Origin: Heliorestis convoluta
GTDB lineage: Bacteria > Bacillota > Desulfitobacteriia > Heliobacteriales > Heliobacteriaceae
DNA: 64,000 nt
Direction: 5' to 3'
Assembly: GCF_009649955.1 (NCBI RefSeq)
Contig: NZ_CP045875.1
Location: 1,221,501 to 1,285,500, forward strand
Part shown: piece by piece, positions 23,082 through 60,319 of the stretch
How the letters are laid out: every line of letters begins with the position of its first letter
How positions within the stretch are numbered: position 1 is the first letter of the stretch
Made by a program: the position numbers and the translations under genes
The notes under the pieces: generated by a model
Told to the model about the DNA's origin: nothing
What the model saw: the letters and a program-made list of their open reading frames with translations, nothing else
Databases searched by the model: none

Positions 23082-23196
23082 GGGTCAGGCGTTATGACTT
23101 CCTTCCAAACGGACTCATCCCACGCCATGAGCGGCAGCAAGCTGCCGATGGCTGAGGTCTGAAGTCCTCTCTCCAGGAAGTCATAACGCCTGACCC
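23082..23196 (-). repeat. 115-bp hairpin module B, solo inverted copy
   Basis: GGGTCAGGCGTTATGA at one end pairs with TCATAACGCCTGACCC at the other, with inner stems as in the other copies. Here it is in reverse orientation, alone, flanked on its right by the usual B-side linker (CTTGCTGATTGTGACTGAG) that runs to about 23235. Confidence 0.8.
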
Positions 23197-23230
23197 AGAT
23201 ACATCTTGCTGATTGTGACTGAGTTTTGGC

Positions 23231-23311
23231 CTATTGCATCATTTCTTTTACAGAATCCATCCCTTGTGGCAGACGCTCTTCTTGCACGAAACCATTTTTT
23301 TGCAATGACAT
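23231..23311 (-). pseudogene. 5' end of a gene cut by repeat module B (26 codons)
   Basis: A strong AAGGAGG precedes the ATG at 23311. The frame reads MSLQKNGFVQEERLPQGMDS and ends MMQ-stop, where the stop lies in the repeat linker (GCAATAGGCC). Either a real 26-aa peptide or a gene truncated by the repeat; the second seems likelier. 23312-23475 holds nothing else visible. Confidence 0.4.
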
Positions 23312-23547
23312 AGTCGCTACGCCTCCTTAGTCTCTCAATTTCAAATATTCAGAAGATTTCAATCAAGCTATTTCCACATCAAACCATAAAATCCTTCCTA
23401 GAAGAAAAAGTTTTGGAAAAAAACATTCATAAAACACAGTTCCTTTCCATTTTAGAAACCTTACATGCTAACTCCTTTATGCCCGGCTGAGCACAACCAA
23501 CGATGAAAATCAGCTTTTCCTGATTACGTTGGGGTTACTTCATAGAG

Positions 23548-23908
23548 GGGCCAGGTCATCACGCTTTCCTCCGCTCTGGACTGGTCCCACGCTGTTACCG
23601 CCAGCAAGCTGGCGACAGCTGAGGTCCCAAGTCCCGCTGCGGAAAGCGTGATGCCCAGGCCCAGAGAATTTTTGCTGATTGTTACTTTCCGTTGACATTG
23701 CTTTGCGCAACTTTCTGCGATGTATACGCAATTGCTTATTGTATTTGTATTTGCAATAGGCCAAAACGCAGTCACAACCAGCAAGATGTACCTGGGTCAG
23801 GCGTTATGACTTCCTGGAGAGAGGACTTCAGACCTCAGCCATCGGCAGCTTGCTGCCGGTTATGGCGTGGGATGAGTCCGTTCGGAAGGAAATCATAACG
23901 CCTGACCC
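23548..23908 (+). repeat. Paired 115-bp hairpin modules A and B, copy II
   Basis: Module A 23548-23662 (outer stem GGGCC(A)GG...CATCACGC with its complement) and module B 23794-23908 (outer stem GGGTCAGGCGTTATGA), 131 bp apart. Preceded by a TGCCCGGCTGAGCACAACC segment. Apparent reading frames across it are not genes: they follow the palindromes. Confidence 0.85.
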
Positions 23909-24150
23909 CACCACAAAGTAGCTATTTTCGTACTAGTAGGTAAAAAAAGATGATTGCAAGAGCAATCACAAGAAATATAAAAAAAGAAGTAGGTATATAA
24001 CACCGAAAGATCTGCGTATGTGTAGTATAAGACTGTCAAACTTTTCTAAAGCCCAAGTCCTACCAACAAAAAAAGTCCAGCGTCAAAAGACCGTTAAAAC
24101 CTTCCAAACAACCACTAAACATCCAAAACAAGCCAATTAAAAATTCTGAA

Positions 24151-24551
24151 TTGACAAAATATTCTGCGCAATGATACCATCGAACTCACAAAAGATGGCA
24201 ACAGAATACATGGGAAATAAATCATGGAATTTGCAATTGTTAAAAAGACAACCAAATAGCTTCATCCTTCTTTTATCACTTCGGGTCCTAACAAAGTCTT
24301 AGTCTAAAAAACCATGTAGAGGATCAACAGGGGGAAAAGATCCCTCATGTCGAAAGGTTGCCAGGGAGAGGGAAGCCCTTTTTAAGACAGGAAGTTATGA
24401 AAGGAGGTGAAGTAAAAAAAAGAAAAAATAGTCTAAAAATTTAGAATATTCACTCCTAGCACAATCAAGGAACAGGGAACAAGGAACAGGATTCATCGGA
24501 GGACCGACCAACCACCCAAAGTATTAAAAATGGAGGAGGGGCCATCAGTTC
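24151..24551 (+). promoter_or_regulatory. Probable promoter and leader of the liv operon
   Basis: TTGACA at 24151 with an extended -10-like TGATACCAT at 24172. In the leader, GGATC (24321) can pair with GATCC (24339), while the overlapping TCCCTC (24341) can pair with GAGGGA (24368), which is followed by AGCCCTTTTT. The two pairings exclude each other, as in attenuators. No T-box signature was seen. The rest of 23940-24150 shows no feature. Confidence 0.35.
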
Positions 24552-25757
24552 ATGCTTACAAAAAGCAAAAAAGGCATATTCGCCACTTTAGCTGTTCTGA
24601 CACTGGTAACAGCAACAGCCTTAACAGGATGTGGAGATGGAGCCTCCACTTCCTCAAGCGGTGACACCATCCAAATCGGAGCGCTCGTTGACAAATCGGG
24701 CAAAGGCGCCGACTGGGGTCGTAAAAATGAAATTGCTATGAACATCGCCGTCGAAGAAATCAATGCTTCTGGCGGCATTAACGGAAGTCCTATAGAACTT
24801 CTCGTTCGCGATACCAATGGCAGAAACGAAGAAGCCGTGAACCTCACTCGTAGCCTGGCCGGTCAAGGCGTCGCCGCCATTGTAGGCCCCTTCTTCAGCG
24901 GAGAATGTGAAGTCGCCTTTCCACAAGCCAACCAATTGCAAGTACCGATTATCTCACCCTCATCGGCCAAAGCAGGTATCTCTGAAAACAACCGTCCCTG
25001 GGCATTCCGCAATAGCATGACTGACGATAAGCTACTTCGTGAAGCAACGCCTCGCTTTGTCAAAGCGTTTGATGTGAAAACAGTTGTCGTACTCCATGAT
25101 GAGCGCGATGCCTGGTCCAAAGCAGTCGGGACAGACGATCTACCGAGAGAATTTAAAGCAGCCGGTGTGGAAATCCTCAATGAAGGCAACTATTTCAGCT
25201 TCAACACAGGGGAGACCAACTTTAGTGCCATTGTAACGCAAGTTCGGAATCTCAACCCCGATGCCATTGCTTTCGGAGGCCTCTATAATGAAGCCGCTGC
25301 CTTTGCTCGAGAAATGGAGCGCCAAGGGCTGAAAATACCGGTGCTAGGTGGCGTAGGTATGTATGCGGGTGCCTTGATTCAGCAAGGCGGTACAGCTGTA
25401 GAAAACTTTGTAGCCACCTCAAGCTGGAACGTAGACTCAGAAGATGAACAAGCTAGAAGCTTTGTAGAAAAATTCAAGCCCCAAGCAGCGCAAATTACGC
25501 CAGCCGATCCTTTACCAGGTTCCTTTGAAGCCAACCATTATGAGACCATCTATATGATCGCCCATGTGCTAGAACAAGCCGGTGTTGATCACACAACGCC
25601 TACGGAGGAAGTTCGTTTGGCCCTACGAGATGGTTTCGCCAACTTAAAAGATTTCAAAGGAATCACTGGTTTGACCAGCATAGATGAAAAAGGAGACGGA
25701 ATAAAAACCATCTATCCTCTCGTTGTAAGAGAAGGCAGATTCGAAATCTTAGAATAA
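24552..25757 (+). CDS. livK: Branched-chain amino acid ABC transporter, substrate-binding lipoprotein
   Basis: 401 aa. Lipoprotein signal peptide with lipobox LTGC at about residues 24-27, then a type I periplasmic-binding fold (IQIGALVDKSGKGADWGRKN; AAIVGPFFSGECEVAFPQAN; VVVLHDERDAWSK). Ser/Asp/Glu-rich binding positions are typical of LivJ/LivK. Extracellular, membrane-anchored. First gene of the livKHMGF operon; the GGAGGAGG ribosome site is 10 nt from the ATG. Ligand choice within leucine, isoleucine and valine cannot be read from sequence, but the downstream pathway supports these. Confidence 0.85.
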   Translation: MLTKSKKGIFATLAVLTLVTATALTGCGDGASTSSSGDTIQIGALVDKSGKGADWGRKNEIAMNIAVEEINASGGINGSPIELLVRDTNGRNEEAVNLTRSLAGQGVAAIVGPFFSGECEVAFPQANQLQVPIISPSSAKAGISENNRPWAFRNSMTDDKLLREATPRFVKAFDVKTVVVLHDERDAWSKAVGTDDLPREFKAAGVEILNEGNYFSFNTGETNFSAIVTQVRNLNPDAIAFGGLYNEAAAFAREMERQGLKIPVLGGVGMYAGALIQQGGTAVENFVATSSWNVDSEDEQARSFVEKFKPQAAQITPADPLPGSFEANHYETIYMIAHVLEQAGVDHTTPTEEVRLALRDGFANLKDFKGITGLTSIDEKGDGIKTIYPLVVREGRFEILE

Positions 25758-25815
25758 GAAGCTCATCGCAGCTCTGTAAAAACTTCATAAGTTCTAAGAG
25801 GGAGGGTGTGGACTT

Positions 25816-26697
25816 TTGCTTCTTCTCCAGCAGCTCATCAACGGTTTGATGCAAGGCAGTATCTACGCCCTCGTGGCCATCGGATACTCTCTCGTCTTTG
25901 GCGTCTTGAACTTGCTTAACATGGCCCATGGGGAAGTCTTTATGATCGCAGGCTTTGTGGGACTCTTGCTCATCTTAGCCCTTGACTTGCCTATTTATCT
26001 GGCCATCCCCGCTGCCATGGCAGCGGCAGCTCTTCTGGGCGTAATCATTGAACTTCTCTGTTTTCGACCGATCAAAAAAGAATTTCATCTGGCGCCTGTC
26101 GTTAGCACCATCGCCTTTGGTACCGTTTTAGTCAGTTTGACAGTCAACTTTATCGGTTCGGAACCGCAAGTTTTTCCCGCTCATGTCAATATTGGAGACT
26201 TCTCCGTAGGTGGCATTCTCATTAGTGGCACGGAACTGCTGATGTTCGCCATTGCCATAACTCTCATGGTCTTACTCACCTTTATGCTCGAAAAAACAAA
26301 AACAGGTCGAGCCATGCGAGCCATGGCAGAAAACGAAAAAGCAGCACAAATTTTAGGTGTAAATGTCAAAAGAATTATCATTACCACCTTTGCCATCTCT
26401 GCTGCCTTAGCTGGTATTGCCGGTATCTTAGTCGGTTTGCGCTTTGGTGTGATCAGTCCCTTTGTCGGTGCGACCATTGGCCTAAAAGCATTGGCCGTTA
26501 TGGTGATTGGTGGTCTGGGTAACATTTACGGTGCGATGGTAGCAGGCTTGCTCTTAGGAATGCTCGAAGCAGCCACCGTTGTCATCCCAGGATTATCGCC
26601 CTACGTCGATGCTGTAATCTGGGGTTTTCTCGTCTTCGTCTTGCTCTTTAAACCCAACGGTCTCTTAGGAACAAGAGTACAAGCGGAAAGGGTGTGA
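25816..26697 (+). CDS. livH: Branched-chain amino acid ABC transporter permease LivH
   Basis: 293 aa, TTG start at 25816 after GGGAGGGTGTGG. Eight or so hydrophobic spans; family signature GYSLVFGVLNLLNMAHGEVF near the N-terminus and MRAMAENEKAAQILGVNVKR (the coupling loop to the ATPases). Inner-membrane channel subunit with LivM. Confidence 0.9.
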   Translation: MLLLQQLINGLMQGSIYALVAIGYSLVFGVLNLLNMAHGEVFMIAGFVGLLLILALDLPIYLAIPAAMAAAALLGVIIELLCFRPIKKEFHLAPVVSTIAFGTVLVSLTVNFIGSEPQVFPAHVNIGDFSVGGILISGTELLMFAIAITLMVLLTFMLEKTKTGRAMRAMAENEKAAQILGVNVKRIIITTFAISAALAGIAGILVGLRFGVISPFVGATIGLKALAVMVIGGLGNIYGAMVAGLLLGMLEAATVVIPGLSPYVDAVIWGFLVFVLLFKPNGLLGTRVQAERV

Positions 26698-26703
26698 GCA
26701 AGG

Positions 26704-27567
26704 TTGACAGAATCTGTATTTATTTTTGCCGGAATTAACATTATTTTAGCCATCAGCCTTTATATCACCCTTTCCACAGGGCAGATATCACTAGGCCACG
26801 GTGCCTTTATGGCCATTGGCGCTTACATGGCTTCGGTTATGACTGTAAAATGGGGATTTAATCTCCCTCTTGCAATTGTGGCCGCTGCCATTATGGCTGG
26901 TATTGTTGGCGTTGCTGTCGGCTTTCCGGCCCTTCGCGTTAAAGGAATCTACTTGGCCATTGGAACGCTCGGCTTGGGTGAAGTGGTGCAAGTCTTTTTC
27001 CACAACTTCAAGTACACCGGTGGTGCCTCTGGTATAAGTGGCATGTCTGGCACGACTTTGTATCTTGTCTGGTTTATGGTTGCTTTAACCATTTTGTTTG
27101 CTTGGCAACTTACCCACTCACGCATCGGTTGGGCTTTCAAAGCCGTCCATGAAGATGAGGTAGCAGCCCAATCGATGGGGCTGAATATCACCTATCTGAA
27201 AGTAACTGCTTTTGGTGTAAGTGCAGCCATCGCTGGCATTGCCGGCGCTCTCTATTCTCACTATATTTTCTTTATCGACCCCCACGCTTTTGGTTATCAC
27301 ACTTCCTTGCTGATTCTTTTTTACGTTATCTTTGGCGGTGCCCAGACTTTCTGGGGTGCAGCCCTTGGAGCACTCGTGCTAACCTTGTTGCCTGAGCTCA
27401 TTCGAGGCATGCAAGAATGGCGTCTCACATTCTACGGTATTCTTATTATGGCCATGATGGTTCTTCGTCCACAAGGTCTGATCTCCCACGATACTATTAA
27501 TTGGATTAAAGACTTTTTCAGCAAAAAAAGTCTACCCAAAACAAAAGCCACAGAGGAAGCAGGGTGA
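26704..27567 (+). CDS. livM: Branched-chain amino acid ABC transporter permease LivM
   Basis: 287 aa, TTG start at 26704, 4 bp after livH stop. Shows LSTGQISLGHGAFMAIGAYM and the coupling loop FKAVHEDEVAAQSMGLNITY. Multi-span membrane protein pairing with LivH. Unusually short C-terminus is normal for stand-alone LivM. Confidence 0.9.
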   Translation: MTESVFIFAGINIILAISLYITLSTGQISLGHGAFMAIGAYMASVMTVKWGFNLPLAIVAAAIMAGIVGVAVGFPALRVKGIYLAIGTLGLGEVVQVFFHNFKYTGGASGISGMSGTTLYLVWFMVALTILFAWQLTHSRIGWAFKAVHEDEVAAQSMGLNITYLKVTAFGVSAAIAGIAGALYSHYIFFIDPHAFGYHTSLLILFYVIFGGAQTFWGAALGALVLTLLPELIRGMQEWRLTFYGILIMAMMVLRPQGLISHDTINWIKDFFSKKSLPKTKATEEAG

Positions 27568-27570
27568 TCC

Positions 27571-28326
27571 TTGGTGCTCGTTGTTAGCGAAGTACACAAA
27601 AGTTTTGGCGGCTTAAATGTAATTCACGAATTAAGCTTTCAGGTGCCAGAAGGGTTTATTTTCAGTCTCATTGGACCGAATGGAGCCGGCAAAACAACAC
27701 TTTTCAACATGATTACAGGCATTTACCCTGTCGATCGTGGCCACATCTCCTTTCAAGGCACGACCTTAAATGGCTTAAAGCCCTATGAGATCACTCGCTT
27801 AGGCATTGCCCGTACTTTTCAGAATATTCGACTTTTTCCGCATATGACGGTGCTCGAAAATGTACGCATCGGGCAAAGCACCAAAGTCAACACAGGCTTG
27901 CGCAGTCTTATTCCCGCCTATGAGCGTTCCTTAGAAAAAGAGTTGGCCCAGGAAGCCCAAGAAGCGCTGGCCCTATTGGGACTGGAAGAGAAAAAAGATC
28001 AATATGCAGGCCAGCTTTCCTACGGCGATCAAAGGCGGGTAGAGATTGCCAGAGCCCTGGCGACAGGTGCAAAGCTTCTCCTCCTTGATGAGCCTGCCGC
28101 CGGTTTGAATCCCGATGAAAGCAAAGGGCTCAACGAGATTATTCTAAAAATCCGTAAAGCAGGTCATACCATTTTGCTTATTGAGCACGACATGTCTGTC
28201 GTCATGGAAATTTCAGACCATGTTCTGGTTATTAACTTTGGCGAAAAAATCGCTGAAGGCGATCCTGCCACCGTGCAGGCCAATCCGCTGGTGCTAGAGG
28301 CCTATCTGGGAAAGGATGAAGAATGA
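27571..28326 (+). CDS. livG: Branched-chain amino acid ABC transporter ATPase LivG
   Basis: 251 aa. Walker A GPNGAGKTT, signature LSYGDQRRVEIARAL, Walker B LLLLDEPAAGL, and the LivG-typical RTFQNIRLFPHMTVLENV. TTG (27571) or the adjacent GTG starts it; the end overlaps livF by 4 nt (ATGA). Confidence 0.92.
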   Translation: MVLVVSEVHKSFGGLNVIHELSFQVPEGFIFSLIGPNGAGKTTLFNMITGIYPVDRGHISFQGTTLNGLKPYEITRLGIARTFQNIRLFPHMTVLENVRIGQSTKVNTGLRSLIPAYERSLEKELAQEAQEALALLGLEEKKDQYAGQLSYGDQRRVEIARALATGAKLLLLDEPAAGLNPDESKGLNEIILKIRKAGHTILLIEHDMSVVMEISDHVLVINFGEKIAEGDPATVQANPLVLEAYLGKDEE

Positions 28327-29072
28327 TGGAAAAGGTTCTACAGGTAAAGAACCTGAAAGTTGCGTACGGACCGATTAAAGCGTTAAAGGGTATTGATCTC
28401 GAAGTCCGTCAAGGCGAAACTGTTGCCATCATTGGGGCCAATGGTGCTGGCAAATCTACTTTGCTCAAGACCATCTCCGGTCTCTTAAAGCCTGCAGAAG
28501 GCACCATTGAGTTTAGAGGCCAGCCTCTTACGTCGATGGCGCCCCATCACATCGTGAGCAAAGGGCTTATCCACGTTCCTGAAGGCAGAGCTGTCTTAGG
28601 TCGCATGACCGTAGAAGATAACTTGCTGATGGGTGCCTATTGTCGCAAAGACGAAAAAGAGATTCAAGAAGACCTTGAAAAAGTGCTTGCTTTATTTCCC
28701 ATCTTGAAAGAGCGCTTTAAGTTTCAAGCAGGCAATCTTTCGGGAGGACAGCAGCAAATGCTGGCCATCGGCCGTGGCATGATGGCCCGTCCACAAATCA
28801 TGATGCTTGATGAACCTTCTCTAGGCTTAGCACCCATTGTAATCAAAGAGATCTTTGAAATCATTAAAAACTTGCGCGATAAAGGCATCACCGTATTGCT
28901 GGTGGAACAAAATGCCAAGCAAGCGCTCAAAGTGGCCGACCGTGGTTATGTCTTAGAGACCGGTCGTGTCGTTTTAAGCGACAGTGGCGCCAATCTTTTA
29001 CGCAGCGAAGAAGTAACGCGAGCCTATCTTGGGGAACGCAAAGACGACACCCGGCGTGCTCTCACTGCATAA
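28323..29072 (+). CDS. livF: Branched-chain amino acid ABC transporter ATPase LivF
   Basis: 249 aa. Walker A GANGAGKST, signature LSGGQQQMLAIGRGM, Walker B IMMLDEPSLGL; VPEGRAVLGRMTVEDNLLMG is typical of LivF. Last transporter gene, 29 bp before the carboxylase block, so import and degradation are probably cotranscribed. Confidence 0.92.
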   Translation: MMEKVLQVKNLKVAYGPIKALKGIDLEVRQGETVAIIGANGAGKSTLLKTISGLLKPAEGTIEFRGQPLTSMAPHHIVSKGLIHVPEGRAVLGRMTVEDNLLMGAYCRKDEKEIQEDLEKVLALFPILKERFKFQAGNLSGGQQQMLAIGRGMMARPQIMMLDEPSLGLAPIVIKEIFEIIKNLRDKGITVLLVEQNAKQALKVADRGYVLETGRVVLSDSGANLLRSEEVTRAYLGERKDDTRRALTA

Positions 29073-29101
29073 GTATCGTTGTAAAAAAAGGAGGCGGTAT
29101 T

Positions 29102-30448
29102 TTGTTTAACAAAGTTCTCATCGCCAATCGCGGTGAAATCGCTCTTCGGCTTTTGCGAGCAGCCCAGGCCTTACAGATTCGAACCGTACTAGTTTACTCG
29201 GAAGCCGATCAAGATACCCTTCCTGTTAAGGAGGCCGATGAGGCATACCTCATCGGTCCCCCCCCCGTCGCCCAGAGCTATTTGCAAGTCGAAAAAATTC
29301 TAGAAGTGGCAAAAAAAACGGGTGCCCAAGCCATTCATCCTGGCTACGGTTTGCTCTCTGAAAATGCAACTTTTGCCCGCCGTTGCGCCGAAGAAGGAAT
29401 AAAGTTCATTGGTCCGTCAGCTTCAATTATCGCCATCATGGGTGATAAAGTGGCTGCTCGCCGCACCATGGCGGCCGCTGGCGTACCCGTTGTGCCAGGT
29501 ACAGAACGGGCACCTGAAGATTTGCAAGCCGCCCTTGTAGAAGCCAATCGCATTGGCTACCCCATCATGGTCAAAGCAGCCGCCGGGGGTGGAGGCATCG
29601 GCATGCAAATTGCCCACGATGAATCGGCTTTAGCGGCAGCCTGGGAAAGCTGCGCCCACCGTGGAGGCCGCTTTTTCGGAGATAGAACACTTTTTCTAGA
29701 GCGCTACTTCTCTAGAAGTCGTCATATTGAGGTTCAATTGATGGCCGATGAACATGGCAATGCCATTCATCTTTTTGAAAGAGATTGCTCCATTCAAAGA
29801 CGGCATCAAAAAATCGTAGAAGAAGCACCGGCTGCCCAGCTTTCTCTGGAATTGCGAGAAAAAATGGGACAAGTGGCCTTGAAAGCAGCCCGTGCCATTG
29901 GGTACTCCAATGTTGGTACCATGGAATTTCTTGTCGATGAAGATGACAATTTTTACTTTCTGGAGATGAATACGCGCTTACAGGTGGAGCACCCCGTTAC
30001 AGAAATGGTGACAAACATCGACATTGCCCAAGCCCAGTATCGCATTGCCGCCGGTGAAAAGCTTTGGCTTCAGCAAGAAGATGTGGCCCTTCAAGGTCAT
30101 GCTATTGAGGTGCGGCTCTATGCTGAAAACCCCGACAACTTCTTGCCTTCACCCGGCAGAATCAATCACTTCTATATACCACAAAAAGAAAATGTTCGCG
30201 TCGATGGCTGGGTCCAAAGTGGTACCGTCGTAACGCCTTATTACGATCCGCTGCTCGCTAAAATCATCGCGCATGGCGAGAATCGAGCAGAAGCCATTGC
30301 CATGTTGCAAGCAACATTGCAAGAAACAGAAATTGAAGGGATCAAAACAAATTTACCTGTACTCAAAGATATTTTAGCCCATCACACTTTCCAAGCGGGA
30401 GAAGGCAATTGCTATTTTGTACGAGAAATGCTCGGCAAAGCTGTCTAA
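29102..30448 (+). CDS. Biotin carboxylase subunit of acyl-CoA (probably 3-methylcrotonyl-CoA) carboxylase
   Basis: 448 aa, TTG at 29102 after GGAGGCGG. ATP-grasp marks: VKAAAGGGGIGMQIA, ERDCSIQRRHQKIVEEAPA, EMNTRLQVEHPVTEMVT. It carboxylates biotin on the separate BCCP encoded next. Length and separate BCCP match Bacillus YngH rather than the fused MccA. The downstream hydratase, carboxyltransferase and HMG-CoA lyase make 3-methylcrotonyl-CoA the best substrate guess; propionyl-CoA is an alternative. Confidence 0.85.
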   Translation: MFNKVLIANRGEIALRLLRAAQALQIRTVLVYSEADQDTLPVKEADEAYLIGPPPVAQSYLQVEKILEVAKKTGAQAIHPGYGLLSENATFARRCAEEGIKFIGPSASIIAIMGDKVAARRTMAAAGVPVVPGTERAPEDLQAALVEANRIGYPIMVKAAAGGGGIGMQIAHDESALAAAWESCAHRGGRFFGDRTLFLERYFSRSRHIEVQLMADEHGNAIHLFERDCSIQRRHQKIVEEAPAAQLSLELREKMGQVALKAARAIGYSNVGTMEFLVDEDDNFYFLEMNTRLQVEHPVTEMVTNIDIAQAQYRIAAGEKLWLQQEDVALQGHAIEVRLYAENPDNFLPSPGRINHFYIPQKENVRVDGWVQSGTVVTPYYDPLLAKIIAHGENRAEAIAMLQATLQETEIEGIKTNLPVLKDILAHHTFQAGEGNCYFVREMLGKAV

Positions 30449-30493
30449 GGCAGTGCCAGTCCTGAAAGTACATGAAGGAGGAGCTACTACATC

Positions 30494-30706
30494 ATGAAGG
30501 AAGTTACAGCGACAATGGCAGGGATGGTCTTACGTCTCCAAGTTAATCCTGGCGATAAAGTGGAAGAGAACCAGGAAGTTTTATATCTTGAGTCCATGAA
30601 GATGGAGATTCCTGTCCAATCGACTTTTGCAGGCACTGTTGTTGAAAGCAAAGTCGCAGAAGGGGAATTTGTCAACGAAGGCGATGTTCTTTTGTTGTTA
30701 GAGTAG
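30494..30706 (+). CDS. Biotin carboxyl carrier protein (70 aa)
   Basis: ATG at 30494 after AAGGAGGAGCTACTACATC. A single biotinyl domain with ESMKMEIPV (biotinylated Lys in the MKM motif; the usual Ala is Ser here). Same size as Bacillus YngHB. Shuttles carboxybiotin between the subunits encoded at 29102 and 31563. Confidence 0.9.
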   Translation: MKEVTATMAGMVLRLQVNPGDKVEENQEVLYLESMKMEIPVQSTFAGTVVESKVAEGEFVNEGDVLLLLE

Positions 30707-52411: not shown

Positions 52412-52582
52412 CCTTTGCCACGCAAAGGGCGCATACAGAATTCGCCGTCTCAGCCTGTCGTCGTGCTCCTCGATGAACCTTCTTGCTACAGGATTTCCCC
52501 TCTAACCAGTCATGCCAGGTCGGGCACAACCATTTGATGAAAATCAGCTTTTTCTGATTAACGTTGGGGTTACTTCAGAGAG

Positions 52583-52937
52583 GGGCCTGGTCATCACGCT
52601 TTCCTCCGCTCTGGACTGGTCCCACGCTGTTACCGCCAGCAAGCTGGCGACAGCTGAGGTCCCAAGTCCCGCTGCGGAAAGCGTGATGCCCAGGCCCAGA
52701 GGGTTTTTGCTGATTGTTACTTCCGTTGGAATAGCTTGGCGAAACTTTCTTCTATCCGCAACTACCTATTGTATTTGCAATGCAATAGGCCAAAACTCAG
52801 TCACAACCAGCAAGATGTATCTGGGTCAGGCGTTATGACTTCCTGGAGGGAGGACTTCAGACCTCAGCCATCGGCAGCTTGCTGCCGCTCATGGCGTGAA
52901 ATGAGTCCGTTCGGAAGGAATTCATAACGCCTGACCC
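52583..52937 (+). repeat. Paired 115-bp hairpin modules A and B, copy III
   Basis: A 52583-52697, B 52823-52937. The flanking motif TGCC(A/C)GGT(C/T)GGGCACAACC occurs before (52512) and after (52973), followed by GATGAAAAT and a GCTATTTTCGTGTTAAC segment. Confidence 0.85.
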
Positions 52938-53133
52938 CACCACAAAGTAGCTATTTTCGTGTTAACCAGTCATGCCCGGTTGGGCACAACCAAAGATGAA
53001 AATGCTATTTTCGTGTTAACCAACAATCAGAACCCGATATTTCCTATGAAGTAAATTTCATGGAACTTCCTCTAGCGAGGCATACTAGCCCTGAAAAAGC
53101 CTTAGTACATGCCTAACAGGAGGAAGATTTCAG

Positions 53134-53952
53134 ATGCATAAAGATCAGGGAAGCCATCATAACCACCATAACAACCCGAATCCCTATGGGATGCAACAGG
53201 GAACCAACCAAAACATTTACCAACCTATACACCAAATGCCTCAAGATCTACACAATCTCATCACCAGAATGGGCAACTTCCAGGGTCGCTTTAATCTTGA
53301 TAAATCAGGCTTCGACAATGCTATGCCCGGACACAGTAGCAATCACTCCATGATTTTTCGTCAACAACCAAGAACGGTAAAGCAAATCGGTTGTGGCATC
53401 GGCCTTCCTTATGAAACGCGCCTAGAAATGGCCTTGATGCTCGACGATCACCAATGCGCCTTAACAGTCGCCCTGCATCAATACAACAAACATCACTGGC
53501 TTACAGAAGGCGCAGAATCTTTTATCAGCCTTCATCATCTCCTTGACGAACACATTGATCAAACACAAAAGCATATCGATATGGTCGGAGAGCGAGTGGC
53601 CCGTCTTGGCGGTGTACCCACAGCCCATCCTGTAACGCAACATGAACTATCTTACATCAAACACGAAGTAGAAGGGCGCTATAGCATTCGAGACTTTATA
53701 CGCAACGATTTAGAACAGGAACTAAAAATGCAAACCATGTTGCGCACAACCATCGATAGAGCCCATCAACTCAAAGACTTCGGCACTGTAGAAGTACTCG
53801 AAGAAGTCCTCAAAGATCGAGAAGATCTGGGCTATCATCTCTACAGCATCCTAGAAGATGACACACTCACCCGCGGCATGACCCATCTCATGGACAACCA
53901 CTACGACCGCGCCGGCGATCGCCCCATGAATCCAAACAGTAAATTACAGTAA
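53134..53952 (+). CDS. dps: Dps-family ferritin-like protein
   Basis: 272 aa, ATG at 53134 after AGGAGGAAGATTTCAG. A His/Asn-rich N-terminal extension of ~80 residues precedes a Dps four-helix bundle: ALHQYNKHHWLTEGAESFIS then LHHLLDEHID and GERVARLGGVPTAH. The KHHW...LHxxxDEH pattern supplies the ferroxidase ligands. Longer than the usual ~160 aa because of the extension, which may bind metal or DNA. Protects DNA and stores iron. Confidence 0.85.
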   Translation: MHKDQGSHHNHHNNPNPYGMQQGTNQNIYQPIHQMPQDLHNLITRMGNFQGRFNLDKSGFDNAMPGHSSNHSMIFRQQPRTVKQIGCGIGLPYETRLEMALMLDDHQCALTVALHQYNKHHWLTEGAESFISLHHLLDEHIDQTQKHIDMVGERVARLGGVPTAHPVTQHELSYIKHEVEGRYSIRDFIRNDLEQELKMQTMLRTTIDRAHQLKDFGTVEVLEEVLKDREDLGYHLYSILEDDTLTRGMTHLMDNHYDRAGDRPMNPNSKLQ

Positions 53953-54139
53953 AATCCTACGTAGAGATCAAAAATTAGAATAGACCCAATCGAAATAGTC
54001 GGTGCTGTACGCAACCGGCTATTTCTATGTTAACCAGTCAATCCCCGTTGGGCGCAACCATGGATGAAAATAGCTGCCAAACGAAGCGTCCTCGTATCAT
54101 TCGTGCCATGTCCGATTACGTTGGGGTTACTTCATACTG

Positions 54140-54508
54140 GGGCCTGGTCATCACGCTTTCCTCCGCTCTGGACTGGTCCCACGCTGTTACCGCCAGCAAG
54201 CTGGCGACAGCTGAGGTCCCAAGTCCCGCTGCGGAAAGCGTGATGCCCAGACCCAGAGGACTTTTTGCTGATTGTTACTTTCCGTTGACATTGCTTTGCG
54301 CTTTGCGCAACTTTCTGCGGTGTATACGCAACTGCTTATTGCATTTGTATTTGCAATAGGTCAAAACTCAGTCACAACCAGCAAGATGTACCTGGGTCAG
54401 GCGTTATGACTTCCTGGAGAGAGGACTTCAGACCTCAGCCATCGGCAGCTTGCTGCCGCTCATGGCGTGGGATGAGTCCGTTCGGAAGGAAATCATAACG
54501 CCTGACCC
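54140..54508 (+). repeat. Paired 115-bp hairpin modules A and B, copy IV
   Basis: A 54140-54254, B 54394-54508. Preceded at 54030 and followed at 54540-54640 by the TGCCC/GGGCA flanking motif, the latter in two tandem ~57-bp units. Confidence 0.85.
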
Positions 54509-54739
54509 CACCACAAAGTACCAATTGACTATTTTCGTACTAACCAGTCATGCCCGGTTGGGCACAACCAAAGATGAAAATGCTATTTTCGTGTTAACTG
54601 GCCATGCCCCGTCAGACACAGCCAAAGATAAAAGTTGACGTTTTTTTGCTACTACGATATAAAATTGCTAAGAGAAACGAATCTTCTAAGAGTGAATTGT
54701 TTTTTATTTCCTATCTTTCTAATCAAGGAGTGATGTGAC

Positions 54740-56266
54740 GTGAATTGGAAAAAAGCTAGATCCAAATTTTTTCTCTCTTTGATTCTGATGCTAACGCTTT
54801 TGGTAACGACGAGCCTATTTGCCTCCCAAGATTTTAGCGAAGGCGCTTCTTCTCGTAACTTTGTCTTTGTTGATGATGTAAAAGTCATCGTCAATGGGGA
54901 AGAAGTTTACTTTGATCGACCCTTACTCAACGCACAAAATCGCTTGTTGATTCCGTTGCGATCCGTCGGGGAAGCACTGGGTGCTCAGTTTCAGTGGCAG
55001 GAGCAGAGCCGAACCATCCTTATGATAGATGGAGAGAATCGAGTAGCCATGTGGCCTGAACGCTACGAAGTAGAGGTAAATAATCGGTTACAAAGAATCG
55101 ATGTGGCACCGATCATAGAGGAAGGAAGAACCTATGTCCCCTTGCGCTTTGTTAGCGAAATCATGGGAAATAAGGTTGATTGGATTGAAGCAAGTCGTAG
55201 TGCTTTCATTACAAGCCTGAATCCTAGAGGGACAGTGCCTTCACCGACCCATCCTACGGAACGAATGAATGAACAAAGCTTCATCAACCTACAAATCGGC
55301 GATACAGAAGAAAAAGTGCGCCGCCTTGTTGGTGAACCTGCACGCATCGATCCAGGCGAATATGGCTATAACTGGTGGATTTACAACCGTAACCCCGCTC
55401 ATTTGTTCATGGTGGGTATTGGCAATGGCCAGGTACGAGCCATTTTCAGTTCTTCTGAATCCTTCTCACTACAAGGCGTCACTATAGGCAGCTCTTATTC
55501 CGCCGTAGAAAAAACTTGGCCACTCCGCAGAAGCGTGAATTATCCCATTGCAGGAGGACAGATTGGCTTTGAACTAACAGCAGAAGATTTGCGGACTCGT
55601 CCTCTAATTATTGAAGGAAATCAAGCTCTAATTTTTTACATAGATCGGCACGGAGGCAATAAGGTCGCTGGCATTATGATGATGGATGTGCCCTCCCTTT
55701 TTGCCAGTCAGCGCTACGGCTACCGGATTTCAACGCGCGACCGAGCCACCTTTCAACAGTGGGAACAGCGCAAAGGGACGAACAATTCACTCGCCGTAGC
55801 CCAAGCCTATGAACGCCAGGTTCTCGATTTGACCAACGCCGCAAGATGGCAGGCCCTAAACGATCTAGAGGCCCATGCTTTTTTATCCCCTTCGCTTTCT
55901 TCCATGGGCAGAATGTCTCCTCGTGGCGCAATCGAAGTAAAATGGCATGAAAATATGGCCCAAGTAGCTCGTGCCCACTCCCAAGACATGGCCACCCATC
56001 GCTTTTTTAATCACACTTCTCCGAATACAGGCACTTTCTCAGACCGCATGAAAAAATCCGGCGTCACCTACTGGCATGCCGGTGAAAACCTCGCCATGGG
56101 GCAAGCCGATGCCATCGATGCCCACTTCGGCTGGATCAACAGCCTTGGACATCGCGAAAACCTTCTCAACCCAGTCTACAACAACCTAGGCATCGGCGTG
56201 GTCTATGGAACCGATGAAAAAGGGCGACTCCTCCGCTACTATACCCAGAACTTCATTACCCAGTAA
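54740..56266 (+). CDS. Secreted stalk-domain / CAP-domain protein
   Basis: 508 aa, GTG at 54740 after AAGGAGTGATGTGAC. Signal peptide ends near SLFASQD. Residues ~45-160: copper amine oxidase N-terminal-like stalk domain (LIPLRSVGEALGAQFQW, YVPLRFVSEIMGNKVDW). ~175-330: CAP-associated domain (IGDTEEKVRRLVGEP ... GVTIGSSYSAVEKTW). ~370-508: CAP/SCP domain with HSQDMATHRFFNHTSP, HAGENLAMG and GHRENLLNPVYNNLGIGV. Exported surface or spore-coat-like protein; catalytic role unproven. Confidence 0.88.
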   Translation: MNWKKARSKFFLSLILMLTLLVTTSLFASQDFSEGASSRNFVFVDDVKVIVNGEEVYFDRPLLNAQNRLLIPLRSVGEALGAQFQWQEQSRTILMIDGENRVAMWPERYEVEVNNRLQRIDVAPIIEEGRTYVPLRFVSEIMGNKVDWIEASRSAFITSLNPRGTVPSPTHPTERMNEQSFINLQIGDTEEKVRRLVGEPARIDPGEYGYNWWIYNRNPAHLFMVGIGNGQVRAIFSSSESFSLQGVTIGSSYSAVEKTWPLRRSVNYPIAGGQIGFELTAEDLRTRPLIIEGNQALIFYIDRHGGNKVAGIMMMDVPSLFASQRYGYRISTRDRATFQQWEQRKGTNNSLAVAQAYERQVLDLTNAARWQALNDLEAHAFLSPSLSSMGRMSPRGAIEVKWHENMAQVARAHSQDMATHRFFNHTSPNTGTFSDRMKKSGVTYWHAGENLAMGQADAIDAHFGWINSLGHRENLLNPVYNNLGIGVVYGTDEKGRLLRYYTQNFITQ

Positions 56267-56303
56267 CATCGGTCCAAAAAACACCATAACATCCAACAAT
56301 TCG

Positions 56304-56356
56304 TGTCAAAAACATGACATTCATCAAACACGAAATAAATACTTTTGTGGTATGAT
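56304..56356 (+). promoter_or_regulatory. Promoter and operator of the DUF2318/ABC cluster
   Basis: The palindrome TGTCA-N6-TGACA at 56304-56319 lies upstream of a TATGAT -10 at 56351. The spacing suits repression or activation by a dimeric, possibly metal-responsive, regulator. Confidence 0.45.
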
Positions 56357-56395
56357 TTATTCCGTCCCCTTACACTTAAGGAAAGGTCGGTCGTC

Positions 56396-56989
56396 ATGAC
56401 AAAAGAAAATAAGCGTCAAAAGTTTTCAGCAGAGAATCAAAAGGCTGCAAAAAACAAAACAATGGTCCTTTCAGGGCTCATTGGTGCTTTCTTCGTAATC
56501 CTTGTGGCTGGCTTTTTTCTTTTTTACTCTCCCAACAATGCTCCCGTTTCTGCCCATGGTGGAACTTATGTAGTCGATGAAAAACCCTCTTATAGAGGGC
56601 AAATGATCCCCATGTCCGACATTGAATATGTGCAGGAGCCAGAGGGCATTGTTTTGTCTTTGCAAGAAGTAGAAGCGAAAAAGTTTGTCTACTTTGAACA
56701 TGAACAAGAAGATCGTGCTTTGCCGCTCTCTGTTTTTGTGGCACCCAATGGCCGGGTTGTAGCGGCTGTAAGTGTTTGTGAACCCTGTGGTAGCAATCGT
56801 TTTACCATAGCCGATGATGATCTAGTATGTAATGCCTGTACGACGCGATGGGATTTGAATACTTTAAAAGGAAAAATGGGTGCTTGCATGAATTATCCAC
56901 CCGATGAGCTTCCTTATGTCGTCGATGGAGATCGCTTGATCATCGATGCAGAAGCCGCAAATAACTGGAACACAAGGGACTACAGCTAA
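56396..56989 (+). CDS. DUF2318 membrane-anchored metal-binding protein
   Basis: 197 aa from the ATG at 56396 (AAGGAAAGG upstream). One N-terminal membrane span (MVLSGLIGAFFVILVAGFFL), then an extracytoplasmic domain with CEPCGSNRFT ... VCNACTTRWDL and a final Cys, the DUF2318 Cys pattern. In Campylobacter-type iron uptake clusters DUF2318 proteins occur with FtsX-like permeases and an ATPase, as here. Probably iron- or copper-related. Confidence 0.75.
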   Translation: MTKENKRQKFSAENQKAAKNKTMVLSGLIGAFFVILVAGFFLFYSPNNAPVSAHGGTYVVDEKPSYRGQMIPMSDIEYVQEPEGIVLSLQEVEAKKFVYFEHEQEDRALPLSVFVAPNGRVVAAVSVCEPCGSNRFTIADDDLVCNACTTRWDLNTLKGKMGACMNYPPDELPYVVDGDRLIIDAEAANNWNTRDYS

Positions 56990-58191
56990 TGTCGCTCTTT
57001 TATTTTCTGACCAAGAGCATTGAGCGGCAATGGGGTCGTTTCTTGCTCTTCTTGCTCGGTATTACCATCGCAGTTGCAGGCACCCTTTCTCCTTGGATGC
57101 TCAGTCGAGCTATGGAAACAGCACTGGCCGACGCTTTCGATCTCGTCGGTGCCAATATTGTCATTGCACCACCACCGGATCAATATGACATGCCCCTAGA
57201 TTCAGTAAGAACTGTTTTTACCATTGAAGAAAGCAAAAACCTTGCTGTCGTCAGCCCCAAAGTCCTCGGCATTCTAGAAGCAACCCAGGGACCTCTCACG
57301 ATCATGGGCGTTGCTTTTGATGAAGAAATTCGTCTAAAGCGCTGGTGGTCGGCCCAGGGGCAGTGGCCTTCTTCTTTCCAGGGTGATGTACCGGCCTATC
57401 GCTTTAATCACTCTATGGTAAAACAAGATGCTGAAACGAAGGACCATAAAGATTTTATCGCCAAAGAAGAGCCCCATAGCCTTGTCCTCGGCCATGGCAT
57501 TGCCACAGAGCGAGGCTGGGCTCTAGGGGATCAAGTATTGATAGAAGATCATCTTTTTGTTGTGCAAGCTCTTTTAGACCCCATGGGCACAGCAGAAGAT
57601 CATATGGCTCTCATCGATCTTACCCTAGCGAGCCACTTGCTAGAGCGACCAGGACAAATCTCTATGATGGAAATTGCAGCGCTTTGTGCGACTTGCCCCA
57701 TTGAAATCATAGTTAGCCAACTTGAAGAAGCGCTTTCAGGCTATCAAGTAGAGGCTGTCAGAGAATCGGCAGAAATGAGACAATTGATCATTGGGCGCTT
57801 TACAGCTTTTAGCACCCTAACAGGTCTTGTCGTTGCAGCGGCAGGCATTATGCTGGTGGGATTAACAGCGGCCGCACAAGCTCGTGAGCGGCAGTGGGAA
57901 ATCGCCTTACTACAAGCCATTGGCTTTGGTCGCAAAACAGTAACTCTTTTGTTTAGCGCCCAAGTGGGTCTCGCTGGCTTATTGGCGGGCTTGATCGGCT
58001 ATGGTGCAGCGCTGGCTCTTTCTCTCGCTGTGTGGCCTTATTTGGCACCAGGTGTCTTGTCACCCCTTACTTTCTTCTATCCTTCTGAACTAATTCTAAC
58101 TGTAGCAGCCGCCACACTGGTCGGCGTCCTATCGTCCTATCCGCTATTTTCCAAAGCCGCGAAAAAAGATCCGGCCCGCCTACTTGGGTAA
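56989..58191 (+). CDS. FtsX/MacB-type ABC transporter permease 1
   Basis: 400 aa; ATG at 56989 overlaps the DUF2318 stop by one base. One N-terminal span, a large extracytoplasmic domain and three C-terminal spans (from AFSTLTGLVVAAAGIMLVGL) with the EIALLQAIGFGRKTV loop. Has a CATCP pair (ALCATCPIEI) in the outer domain, unusual for the family, perhaps metal-related. Confidence 0.85.
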   Translation: MSLFYFLTKSIERQWGRFLLFLLGITIAVAGTLSPWMLSRAMETALADAFDLVGANIVIAPPPDQYDMPLDSVRTVFTIEESKNLAVVSPKVLGILEATQGPLTIMGVAFDEEIRLKRWWSAQGQWPSSFQGDVPAYRFNHSMVKQDAETKDHKDFIAKEEPHSLVLGHGIATERGWALGDQVLIEDHLFVVQALLDPMGTAEDHMALIDLTLASHLLERPGQISMMEIAALCATCPIEIIVSQLEEALSGYQVEAVRESAEMRQLIIGRFTAFSTLTGLVVAAAGIMLVGLTAAAQARERQWEIALLQAIGFGRKTVTLLFSAQVGLAGLLAGLIGYGAALALSLAVWPYLAPGVLSPLTFFYPSELILTVAAATLVGVLSSYPLFSKAAKKDPARLLG

Positions 58192-58239
58192 AGCAACTTC
58201 TAGATCATAGCCCCTTTCTTTGGAGGTGAAACGGAGAAA

Positions 58240-58935
58240 ATGAGCCTGATTGTAGCGCAACAACTGTCTCATACCTACGGACAGGGTGAGAGAGCCTATA
58301 AGGCACTAAAGCAAATTGACTTAACCATTGCAGCAGGCGAATTTGTCGCCCTTGTTGGCCCTTCTGGATCCGGAAAGTCAACCTTGCTCTCCATTCTAGG
58401 CGCGCTTACGCAACCGACAACAGGAACGTTGCGTATTGATGGCATTGATGTGGTTGCACTGAATGATGAAGAACGGGCCCGTTTTCGCCGTGAATATGTA
58501 GGCTTTGTTTTTCAACAATTTCATCTAATGCCCTATCTAACAGCGCTAGAAAATGTCATGTTGCCTCTCGTTATGACTTCAATGCCCAAAAAAGAGCAAA
58601 AAGAAAAAGCCCAGATGGCTTTAGAAAAAGTCGGCCTGGCTGAAAAAGGGCACCGATTGCCAGAGCAACTTTCCGGTGGTGAACAAGAGAGGGTTGCTAT
58701 TGCCCGCGCCATTGTCAACGAACCGCCCCTGCTTCTTGCCGATGAACCGACAGGCGCTCTTGATGTAGCCAATGGTGATCGTGTCATGGCTCTATTAACG
58801 GATTTGAACCAAGAAGGACACACTGTTGTCATGGTGACTCATAACCAGGCCTATGAACCTTTGGCCCATCGCGTCATTCCTTTGCAAGATGGCGCTATCG
58901 TCCTTGCCAAACAAAGGCCAGGTGAAGGATCTTGA
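58240..58935 (+). CDS. ABC transporter ATPase (MacB/LolD type)
   Basis: 231 aa, ATG at 58240. Walker A GPSGSGKST, signature LSGGEQERVAIARAI, Walker B LLLADEPTGALD. Works with the two FtsX-like permeases around it. Confidence 0.9.
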   Translation: MSLIVAQQLSHTYGQGERAYKALKQIDLTIAAGEFVALVGPSGSGKSTLLSILGALTQPTTGTLRIDGIDVVALNDEERARFRREYVGFVFQQFHLMPYLTALENVMLPLVMTSMPKKEQKEKAQMALEKVGLAEKGHRLPEQLSGGEQERVAIARAIVNEPPLLLADEPTGALDVANGDRVMALLTDLNQEGHTVVMVTHNQAYEPLAHRVIPLQDGAIVLAKQRPGEGS

Positions 58936-59804
58936 ATCTCTTTGATCTAATCGTAAAAGGGTTATTGCGTACGCCGGCGCGCTCCATCTTTTTCATCATT
59001 ATCATGATGCTAGCGACAGCCTTTTATGGAGGCTTAAATGCCTTAACAGAAGGTGCCGAAGATCAATTGCAACAAGGCCTCGCAACGCAAGAAAACCGCC
59101 TGACCATCACGCCGGGAAGCGATCAGATGATATTACACTATGGTGGTTTTCCCATTCATACGGCCCTTTCCTATCGCGGTAGGGACCTGCCTTATGAAAC
59201 CTTAGAAATCCTAGCTCCTTTCGTAGAGCAAGGAAAAATCATAGCGCTTCACCATCCCGAGACAGAGACTTTCACACGGATTGAAGCCCAGGCTTCTGAT
59301 CGAGCAACCATGCTAGTCCTCCTTCAAGAGCTAGAAAACCTTTTACCAGAAGCAACGGTTGTACCCATTCGCGATGTCGAAGAAGGGCGACAAACGGTCG
59401 CGGATCAAATGGCGCTTTTTCGACTCTATCTATTGGCTGTAACGACTTTGGCCATTGCAGCACTCGTTACGGCTTTTACCAATCTTTCTGTACAAGAGCG
59501 GATGCGTGAGATGACCATCTTAGGTGCCCTTGGCTTCTCGCGCCGTGCTCTCAAGACGCTGCTGCTTGGGGAAATCATCATTCTGGCTCTGATCGGTACA
59601 CTCGGTGGCCTTGTTCTTGGTTTTTGGGGAGCGACTGTTGTGGCTGACCTAGGCGCCACCGCTATGACAACAGGTTGGTCCCTTTCGAATATCATAGGAA
59701 CGATCACGCCTTTACTCCTAGCAACGCTTCTCGGAGGCTTGCTCTCACTGCGACTGGGTATGCGCAGAGGCACCGATCTCCCTAGTGGCAAAGCGGCGCT
59801 ATAA
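58932..59804 (+). CDS. FtsX/MacB-type ABC transporter permease 2
   Basis: 290 aa; TTG at 58932 overlaps the ATPase stop (TTGA). Same topology: N-terminal span, outer domain, three C-terminal spans with MREMTILGALGFSRRALKTL. Last gene of the four-gene unit; repeat copy V begins ~80 bp later. Confidence 0.85.
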   Translation: MNLFDLIVKGLLRTPARSIFFIIIMMLATAFYGGLNALTEGAEDQLQQGLATQENRLTITPGSDQMILHYGGFPIHTALSYRGRDLPYETLEILAPFVEQGKIIALHHPETETFTRIEAQASDRATMLVLLQELENLLPEATVVPIRDVEEGRQTVADQMALFRLYLLAVTTLAIAALVTAFTNLSVQERMREMTILGALGFSRRALKTLLLGEIIILALIGTLGGLVLGFWGATVVADLGATAMTTGWSLSNIIGTITPLLLATLLGGLLSLRLGMRRGTDLPSGKAAL

Positions 59805-59960
59805 TAAAGGAAAAACTGATACGCTGAGATTCCAAGTCCCGCTGCCACCAAACCTTGCCAACCATTGTGCTTTTTTCGTGTTATCCCTCCATGCCTGGTC
59901 GGGCACAACCATTTGATCAAAATCAATGTTTCCTGATTACGTTGGCGTTACTTTGTGCAG

Positions 59961-60319
59961 GGGCCTGGTCATCACGCTTTCCTCCGCTCTGGACTGGTCC
60001 CACGCTGTTACCGCCAGCAAGCTGGCGACAGCTGAGGTCCCAAGTCCCGCTGCGGAAAGCGTGATGCCCAGTCCCAGAGCGTTTTTGCTGATTGTTACTC
60101 CTGTTGGCATTGTTTTGCGTAACTTTTTGCTTGCTATGTTTACACAACTGGCTATTGTATTTGCAATAGGCCAAAACTCAGTCACAACCAGTAAAATGTA
60201 CCTGGGTCAGGCGTTATGACTTCCTGGAGAGAGGACTTCAGACCTCAGCCATCGGCAGCTATGCTGCCGCTCATGGCGTGGGATGAGTCCGTTCGGAAGG
60301 AATTCATAACGCCTGACCC
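59961..60319 (+). repeat. Paired hairpin modules A and B, copy V
   Basis: A 59961-60075 (115 bp) and B 60204-60319 (116 bp; one extra base in the apical CGGCAGCTATGCTGCCG loop). Preceded at 59890 by the TGCCTGGTCGGGCACAACC flanking motif. Confidence 0.85.

What the first reader, a model, noticed from the sequence alone, without database searches (positions are those of the whole stretch)
23082..60319. Repeat family of paired 115-bp hairpins that are inverted homologues with covarying stems
Nine modules at five loci. Module A and the reverse complement of module B align over their whole 115 bp: conserved GGACT, TCCCACGC, CAGCAAGCTG, GCTGAGGTC and AAGTCC. The outer stems differ (GGGCCTGG...CATCACGC versus GGGTCAGGCGTTATGA), yet each pairs perfectly with its own other arm. 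Compensated change means the fold is maintained. Always A then B, 240-254 bp start to start, between core operons. Nothing I know matches: it could be a non-autonomous element (REP/BIME-like), a structured RNA pair, or a recombination or packaging site.
Basis: seen in the sequence. Interest (0 to 1): 0.82.

Follow-up and report, generated by a model that had tools for sequence, protein, structure and literature searches.

The report
Mobile DNA hairpins in photosynthetic bacteria
The window holds copies of an apparently undescribed kind of small mobile DNA hairpin whose tip is fixed in sequence while its stem changes freely but stays paired; in some distant relatives it sits between two copies of a whole gene-end (terminator-like) hairpin, a different one at each site, which hints at an unusual way of jumping.

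Summary
The window (Heliorestis convoluta, inferred) has nine ~115-bp hairpin modules: four A-B inverted pairs and one lone B. I count 147 modules in the genome (lower bound): 59 A-B pairs and 29 singles. A covariance model finds the family in H. acidaminivorans (13 places), Heliobacterium chlorum and H. mobile (5 each, mostly just after 23S rRNA) and six genomes of three other families. Rfam searches gave no match. The core is conserved; the outer stem is free in sequence but paired (covariation score 0.517-0.574; shuffled 0.126-0.174). Outer-stem G-U and A-C mismatches are equally rare (21 versus 23), so the constraint looks strand-neutral.

In G118, the hairpin is the centre of a 141-145-bp element. 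Ten of 11 full copies lie between direct duplicates of a terminator-like hairpin, 16-28 bp, different at each site. This marks insertion and suggests a duplication length set by the target hairpin. It is not detected in H. convoluta (p = 0.29) or in several other relatives.

Best explanation: a non-autonomous, hairpin-recognised mobile element, amplified as a doublet here. No mobilising enzyme was found. It works like a REPIN or MITE, but no RAYT and no parental IS were found.

The parts
23059..23238 (-). half-element: lone module B (hairpin 23081-23195, model strand +) with its right end and inner spacer
   Evidence: inverted repeat I2, R1 122.3 bits, 95% match to bases 227-406 of the element
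23526..23931 (+). full A-B element, copy 1
   Evidence: query; D1/D3
23546..23662 (+). module A, copy 1
   Evidence: R1 105.1 bits; ssDNA fold of 23545-23670 z -6.33
23795..23909 (-). module B, copy 1
   Evidence: R1 123.3 bits
52561..52960 (+). full A-B element, copy 2 (A 52581-52697 +, B 52824-52938 -)
54118..54526 (+). full A-B element, copy 3 (A 54138-54254 +, B 54395-54509 -); the H. acidaminivorans counterpart of this intergenic region has no hairpin
   Evidence: L199, no R1 match in L199
59939..60325 (+). full A-B element, copy 4 (A 59959-60075 +, B 60205-60320 -); the H. acidaminivorans counterpart of this intergenic region has no hairpin
   Evidence: L199
52952..53024 (+). short flanking palindromic repeat R just right of copy 2
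   Evidence: query, 44 hits in the genome (40 candidates scored); D6
54530..54633 (+). two R units right of copy 3
   Evidence: D6, I6
60364..60408 (-). terminator-like hairpin (20 pairs) close to the right end of copy 4
   Evidence: note that the scan as a whole found 12 sites against 10.5 +/- 3.8 in shuffles

Best explanation
[quoted passage not shown] Shown: a ~60-nt conserved core (in the window GGACT..TCCCACGC..CAGCAAGCTG..GCTGAGGTC..AAGTCC) carries a 15-20-bp outer stem that is free in sequence but kept complementary; the hairpins are multi-copy and intergenic; in H. convoluta most are in a fixed head-to-head doublet A-B (~400 bp); in G118, G042 and some G090 copies a single hairpin is the centre of a 141-170-bp element that lies between direct duplications of a local terminator-like hairpin, 16-28 bp long. 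Inferred: an enzyme acting in trans recognises the core while the element is extruded as a hairpin or single-stranded. It cuts each strand of a target hairpin at the same structural position (its base). The palindrome's symmetry then makes the stagger, and so the target duplication, equal to the whole target hairpin. Outer-stem pairing is kept because recognition needs the stem, helped by one arm templating repair of the other. In H. convoluta the same unit spread as a doublet, with the two hairpins as the element's ends.
For: Copy number: 40 scored near-full-length copies, the query included, the other 39 at 91-97% identity; 147 modules, 59 doublets. Intergenic: 21 convergent, 23 tandem, 13 divergent, 1 undetermined of 58 (no genome background was measured). 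Two intergenic regions of H. acidaminivorans orthologous to loaded window regions have no hairpin. A 23S-tRNA-Asn spacer in Heliobacterium exists with (L084, L089) and without (L151) the hairpin. Family in four heliobacteria and six genomes of three other families; 292 of 299 genomes negative. Covariation against shuffle and slide controls. Strand-neutral outer stems: Watson-Crick 873, G-U 21, A-C 23, other mismatches 57. Hairpin duplications: own flanks score >=30 in 9 of 11 G118 copies versus 0 of 110 mispaired (highest 19), a tenth has matching stems with different loops; G042 1 of 1; four of 12 G090 copies by inspection, two of them >=30. Length between duplicates nearly constant (141-145 bp in G118, 146 in G042, 167-170 in G090) while the duplicate varies 16-28 bp. 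14 duplicates folded: 0-3 of 200 letter shuffles as stable (ten of them were picked by duplication score, the four of G090 partly by eye).
Against: No autonomous copy or enzyme found. In H. convoluta flank duplications do not exceed mispaired controls (6 of 58 versus 9.9% of mispaired, permutation p = 0.29), nor in H. acidaminivorans (0 of 12), G124 (0 of 5; best 27, a partial hairpin) or G083 (0 of 8); in G152 the one high-scoring repeat (1 of 8) does not abut the element. So the hairpin-duplication mechanism rests on some relatives only, and mispaired G090 flanks also reach 30 in 3 of 132. In Heliobacterium 8 of 10 hairpins sit after a 23S 3' end and a ninth after a truncated one, which looks vertically inherited or domesticated rather than currently mobile. 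H. acidaminivorans hairpins share the core but by eye no consistent ends. One inner pair is U-G in 34 of 46 distant sequences and inner stems there have G-U 18, A-C 3, which an RNA would tolerate. An earlier count that included the internal loop gave A-C above G-U (55 versus 11 in H. convoluta). Copies that carry host flanks fit ectopic recombination equally well. Long target duplications in discrete classes (15-17, 24-29 bp) are known from the IS1202 group (passages of PMC10045372).
Confidence: 0.6

Rival explanations
1. A structured RNA: the hairpin acts as an RNA (3' UTR, processing site or trans-acting RNA) with a conserved distal core and a free closing stem, as in riboswitches, and was multiplied by duplication.
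For: Conserved core plus covarying closing stem; placed just after 23S rRNA, hence probably transcribed, in Heliobacterium; one inner pair mostly U-G in distant genomes, 34 of 46.
Against: No Rfam match in the stretches searched. No G-U over A-C bias in outer stems (21 versus 23). Both orientations occur between tandem genes (14 same, 9 opposite). The model strand is opposite to rRNA transcription in Heliobacterium. Flanking duplications in relatives.
Confidence: 0.17
2. A passive long quasi-palindrome: copies spread by segmental duplication and ectopic recombination, and the arms are kept matched only by templated repair or strand switching, with no recognition and no function.
For: Arms differ together (52 compensated versus 22 single-sided cells in 73 B modules of shared ancestry, one unpaired column pair excluded); a block change in one arm of one copy and in both arms of others; host flanks duplicated with copies; internal deletions.
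Against: Does not explain the conserved core across four families, the near-constant element length, or the locus-specific duplicates beside it.
Confidence: 0.12
3. A true REPIN/BIME system moved by a RAYT (REP-associated tyrosine transposase).
For: Inverted doublet of palindromes with spacer, extragenic, plus singlets: the REPIN layout (passages of PMC3116915).
Against: The only Y1 transposase match in the genome is next to an OrfB_IS605/TnpB gene and its locus has no model match; modules are ~115 nt, not 20-40 nt.
Confidence: 0.05
4. A chromosomal recombination, packaging or nucoid-organising site.
For: High copy number spread over most of the chromosome; element-bordered fragments of an rRNA operon.
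Against: Patchy distribution: none in five other heliobacteria, hard to square with a housekeeping role.
Confidence: 0.04

Closest known systems
REPINs (REP doublets forming hairpins) with RAYTs, PMC3116915 (passages read)
   Same: two palindromic units in inverted orientation with a spacer as the mobile unit; extragenic; [quoted passage not shown]
   Different: here each unit is itself a ~115-nt hairpin with a conserved core at the tip and a free stem at the base; no RAYT found; single hairpins with flanking duplications are the unit in G118
Bacterial MITEs (review PMC10969869 and others, seen only as search listings)
   Same: short, non-autonomous, high copy, intergenic; target duplications in some relatives
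   Different: imperfect ~15-bp ends (by eye, G118 and G090) plus a large conserved central hairpin; no parental IS identified; duplication length varies with the target hairpin
Group IIC introns, which integrate at DNA stem-loop motifs (passages of PMC10190682; that the targets are often terminators is recalled)
   Same: structured stem-loop DNA as target
   Different: no Rfam hit over the hairpins; the target hairpin is duplicated here (that group IIC insertion makes no duplication is recalled)
IS1202 group (passages of PMC10045372)
   Same: unusually long target duplications
   Different: that paper gives classes of 5-6, 15-17 and 24-29 bp; here the 15 duplicates run from 16 to 28 bp, many of 18-23 bp, each a hairpin; whether an IS1202-type transposase is present was not tested

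Membership tests
REPIN/RAYT | inverted doublet of palindromes as the repeated unit | tested here: met
   59 inverted A-B pairs, 29 singles
REPIN/RAYT | RAYT gene in the genome | tested here: not met
   one Y1_Tnp match in G000, 132-136 aa, adjoining an OrfB_IS605 gene; other genomes were not searched for Y1
REPIN/RAYT | 20-40-bp REP with GTAG/CGTC tag (abstract of PMC3733652 in the listing) | tested here: inconclusive
   modules are ~115 nt; no systematic tag search was run
MITE | short, high-copy, intergenic, no ORF of its own | tested here: met
   (2 of 58 with a probable chance ORF)
MITE | terminal inverted repeats | tested here: inconclusive
   imperfect ~15-bp ends in G118/G090 by eye; in H. 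convoluta the two halves are diverged inverted repeats
MITE | target-site duplication | tested here: inconclusive
   G118 10 of 11 by inspection, G042 1 of 1, G090 4 of 12; not detected in H. convoluta, H. acidaminivorans, G124, G083, G152
MITE | related autonomous IS with the same ends | tested here: not met
   58 left and 62 right ends within 3 mismatches; 7 sites that by eye lacked a hairpin were read, none holds an autonomous copy
Rfam RNA family | covariance-model match | tested here: not met
   0 in the window at gathering, 0 at E<=1 for 23450-24000, none over the hairpins in 9 H. acidaminivorans and 5 distant loci
one-strand functional RNA | G-U tolerated over A-C on the transcribed strand | tested here: inconclusive
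   outer stems G-U 21, A-C 23; inner stems 18 versus 3 in distant genomes, largely from one column pair, and 5 versus 5 in the heliobacterial set
IS200/IS605 non-autonomous derivative | ends match those of the resident IS605 | tested here: not met
   no R1 match in L052; no resemblance by eye

The most novel reading that the evidence does not exclude
A new class of transposition in which an enzyme recognises an extruded element hairpin by its tip and cuts target hairpins (transcription terminators) at a structural, not metric, position on each strand, so that the target duplication is exactly the target hairpin, whatever its length. The A-B elements of the window would be a doublet descendant of that class.
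Probability: 0.33. Interest if true: 0.85.

Novelty: new variant of a known kind. Interest (0 to 1): 0.62.

Why it matters
It adds a family of dispersed hairpin elements found in ten genomes of four bacterial families. I saw no description of it in the papers listed or read in passages; subscription papers are not held. If the duplication rule is right, it is a form of target recognition by DNA shape with a built-in ruler, and it can be tested directly. It would give terminators a role as insertion havens, it accounts for junctions in fragments of an rRNA operon of H. convoluta, and it warns that strong stem covariation alone does not prove a functional RNA.

Tried and rejected
RAYT/IS605 as mobiliser: rejected for G000. 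Rfam: nothing over the hairpins. The hairpin as a displaced 5S rRNA in Heliobacterium operons: rejected, since a true 5S lies elsewhere in both species. A full autonomous copy with the same ends: seven sites read, all truncations, internal deletions, possible chance matches or rearrangements. G118 element in plasmids, A-B element in phages, and a core pattern in viral contigs: no match; one other viral pattern hit had no model match. The genome contigs pattern scan gave 22 stretches: 12 heliobacterial, confirmed, and 10 others with no model match; its letters exclude the distant relatives, so it is no evidence of absence. Orthologous hairpins between the two Heliorestis: same intergenic region in three cases, same orientation and near position in one, but species-typical stems, so no clean orthology. 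Shared protein genes near copies: nine proteins from the shared clusters are ABC transporter, sigma-70 or flagellar rod proteins, one without a Pfam family; none is a transposase; the clusters that run through the hairpins were ignored. Terminator duplication in H. convoluta: not detected.

Counting caveats. One search scored 40 candidates, at most 150 and at most 12 per genome, so copy numbers are lower bounds. The 147 modules come from the 150 best matches plus six added by hand from its table, two of these at 44-46 bits. The 15 matches in H. acidaminivorans are 13 places, two being the opposite strand of others. In one search four modules were skipped. In one search untyped modules were left out and 16 rows of module A are out of register, so only module B is used. 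In one search the partial copy of L225 was left out and flanks under 40 nt were skipped (one each in G152 and G083). T-run and A-run counts have no control. Odds: best explanation lowered from 0.62 to 0.60 and RNA rival raised from 0.15 to 0.17 after adding the inner U-G pair.
Full report
What is there. The window is G000:C1:1221501-1285500 of a 3,218,981-bp single-contig genome. That is exactly the chromosome size given for Heliorestis convoluta HH (PMC7143216, passages), so I take it to be that organism (inference). Module A as single-stranded DNA folds with z = -6.33, the whole element with z = -7.75; none of 200 and 100 shuffles does as well.

Copy number. A DNA search of the genome gave 40 scored near-full-length copies, the query included, and one half. 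A covariance model R1, built on 10 modules, gave 149 matches with 150 candidates scored. After fetching the places I count 147 modules: 59 inverted pairs, 235-260 start to start, and 29 singles. All 59 pairs are A with B: 56 typed by rule, 3 by reading the sequence. 58 pairs could be examined with crude ORF calls: 21 between convergent, 23 tandem and 13 divergent genes, 1 undetermined; 2 had an ORF of 100-154 aa reaching into the element. No background for these classes was measured.

Who else has it. Heliorestis acidaminivorans (G001): 15 matches at 13 places. Heliobacterium chlorum (G002) and H. mobile (G003): 5 each. Five other genomes of the family: none (names by matching contig lengths). 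With a second model R2, 7 of 299 genomes of the phylum match: the own genome and six from three other families (G042 1, G083 12, G118 12, G090 12, G124 10, G152 12; at most 12 scored per genome, stricter filters). The 292 negative genomes are also a specificity control. A letter pattern over one genome for each of 84,980 species gave 22 stretches; the 12 heliobacterial ones match R1 and the other 10 do not, but that pattern cannot match the distant form.

Structure. The copies share a nested hairpin: a conserved tip and core, and a 15-20-bp outer stem that differs between genomes, and in H. acidaminivorans and G152 between nearly all copies, yet is complementary. Across 21 sequences of four species 177 cells have changed on both sides (covariation score 0.574; shuffled 0.174 +/- 0.013; slid 0.077-0.156). 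Across 46 distinct distant sequences the score is 0.517 (shuffled 0.126 +/- 0.008; slid 0.028-0.083). Two cruder measures separate less: doubly changed pairs 25 versus 20.5 shuffled (4 of 500) and number of pair types 66 versus 64.0 (147 of 500). The alignments were fitted to the model's structure, which leans the counts; A2 was aligned by sequence and gives the same picture (0.421 versus 0.144).

RNA or DNA. In outer stems of alignments A5 and A6 the counts are Watson-Crick 873, G-U 21, A-C 23, other mismatches 57. A functional RNA from one strand should tolerate G-U over A-C; the outer stems show no such bias. Against this, inner stems of the distant set have G-U 18 and A-C 3, largely from one pair that is U-G in 34 of 46 sequences; in the heliobacterial set they are 5 and 5. 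An earlier count that included internal-loop columns gave more A-C than G-U (55 versus 11 in H. convoluta, 14 versus 4 in H. acidaminivorans); with outer arms only, H. convoluta gave G-U 10 and A-C 12. In 73 B modules of H. convoluta, leaving out one column pair that is not paired in the consensus, both arms differ compatibly in 52 cells and only one arm in 22 (copies share ancestry, so these are not independent events). That suggests that arms correct each other, or that broken copies do not spread. Rfam gave no match over the hairpins.

Heliobacterium. In H. chlorum and H. mobile 8 of 10 hairpins lie directly after a 23S 3' end (the contigs hold only its last ~180-210 nt), before tRNA-Lys, tRNA-Asn or other sequence; one follows a shorter 23S remnant; one is elsewhere. 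One 23S-tRNA-Asn spacer (L151, H. mobile) has no hairpin, an empty counterpart of L084 and L089; no clear target duplication could be read there.

The relatives that show insertion. In G118 the hairpin is the centre of an element of 141-145 bp with imperfect ends (typically CAGCTTGTAGACAAA and TTTGTCGACGGTCTG). Ten of 11 full copies lie between two direct copies of a terminator-like hairpin, different at each locus (16 to 28 bp; in L220 the stems match but the loops differ); the eleventh (L225) does not. By alignment score 9 of 11 own pairs reach 30 against 0 of 110 mispaired (highest 19). The one G042 copy shows it too (146 bp). In G090, of 12 copies, four show it (167-170 bp; two score >=30, two 25-26); mispaired G090 flanks reach 30 in 3 of 132, probably from neighbouring copies in one locus. 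G124 0 of 5 (best 27, a partial hairpin), G083 0 of 8 (best 27), H. acidaminivorans 0 of 12, G152 1 of 8 (a repeat that does not abut the element). H. convoluta: 6 of 58 own versus 9.9% of mispaired, p = 0.29. Fourteen duplicates were folded; 0-3 of 200 letter shuffles are as stable. Of 15 duplicates, 7 right copies are followed by a T-run and 8 left copies preceded by an A-run, 11 with either (no control).

Mechanism. A near-constant element length beside a variable duplicate that is a palindrome suggests the same structural cut on each strand of a palindromic target: its symmetry makes the stagger equal to the palindrome. This is inference. Long duplications are known for the IS1202 group in discrete classes (PMC10045372, passages), and group IIC introns read DNA stem-loops (PMC10190682, passages), so the parts have precedent; I saw no description of this combination in the listings. 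For the window's own elements I infer the same type of mobility from homology of the hairpin, copy number, and two H. acidaminivorans regions without a hairpin. The duplication itself is not shown there.

Mobiliser. Only one Y1 transposase match is in the genome; it adjoins an OrfB_IS605 gene and the locus has no model match. Seven end sequences that by eye lacked a hairpin in the expected place were read: they are truncated, internally deleted, rearranged or possibly chance. Other transposase families were not searched. The enzyme remains unknown.

Verdict. A real family of dispersed DNA hairpins, most probably mobile, in at least ten genomes. It works like REPINs or MITEs but fails the RAYT test in this genome and lacks a known parent. 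New variant of a known kind, with a possible new target rule in relatives.

Noticed in passing
L138 (G000:C1:504200-507100) and L202 (G000:C1:1679000-1684500): Probable remains of a broken rRNA operon: a 23S 3' part fused to the element's left end at one place and a 16S 5' part fused to the element's right end at another, 1.2 Mb away (16S recognised by eye). The genome paper mentions one partial 16S.
   Followed up: partly
L095 and L102; window 23240-23525 and G000:C1:433366-434051: Host fragments of roughly 100-420 bp (one resembling the start of a comEA-like gene, named by eye) are duplicated together with an element copy.
   Followed up: partly
window 52952-53024, 54530-54633 and 44 hits in the genome: A second palindromic repeat R of about 54 bp, sometimes tandem, flanks many A-B elements and also stands alone, in four of six such loci just before a terminator-like hairpin (by eye).
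   Followed up: partly
L135 (G000 1612096), L101, L203, L204, L200: Internally deleted copies, including an A-arm/B-arm hybrid joined at the conserved core and a B copy that lost the core but kept the stem arms.
   Followed up: no
L163 7577-8075: One H. convoluta rRNA operon has two 5S genes between 16S and 23S, on either side of tRNA-Ile and tRNA-Ala, and none directly after 23S.
   Followed up: no
L051 1821-2435: An OLE RNA (523 bits) lies about 220 bp from a hairpin in H. acidaminivorans.
   Followed up: no
window 60505-60804: Tandem 30-bp repeats in the coding end of a gene with a Cu_amine_oxidN1 domain; the H. acidaminivorans counterpart also has a repetitive tail, of different sequence.
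   Followed up: no
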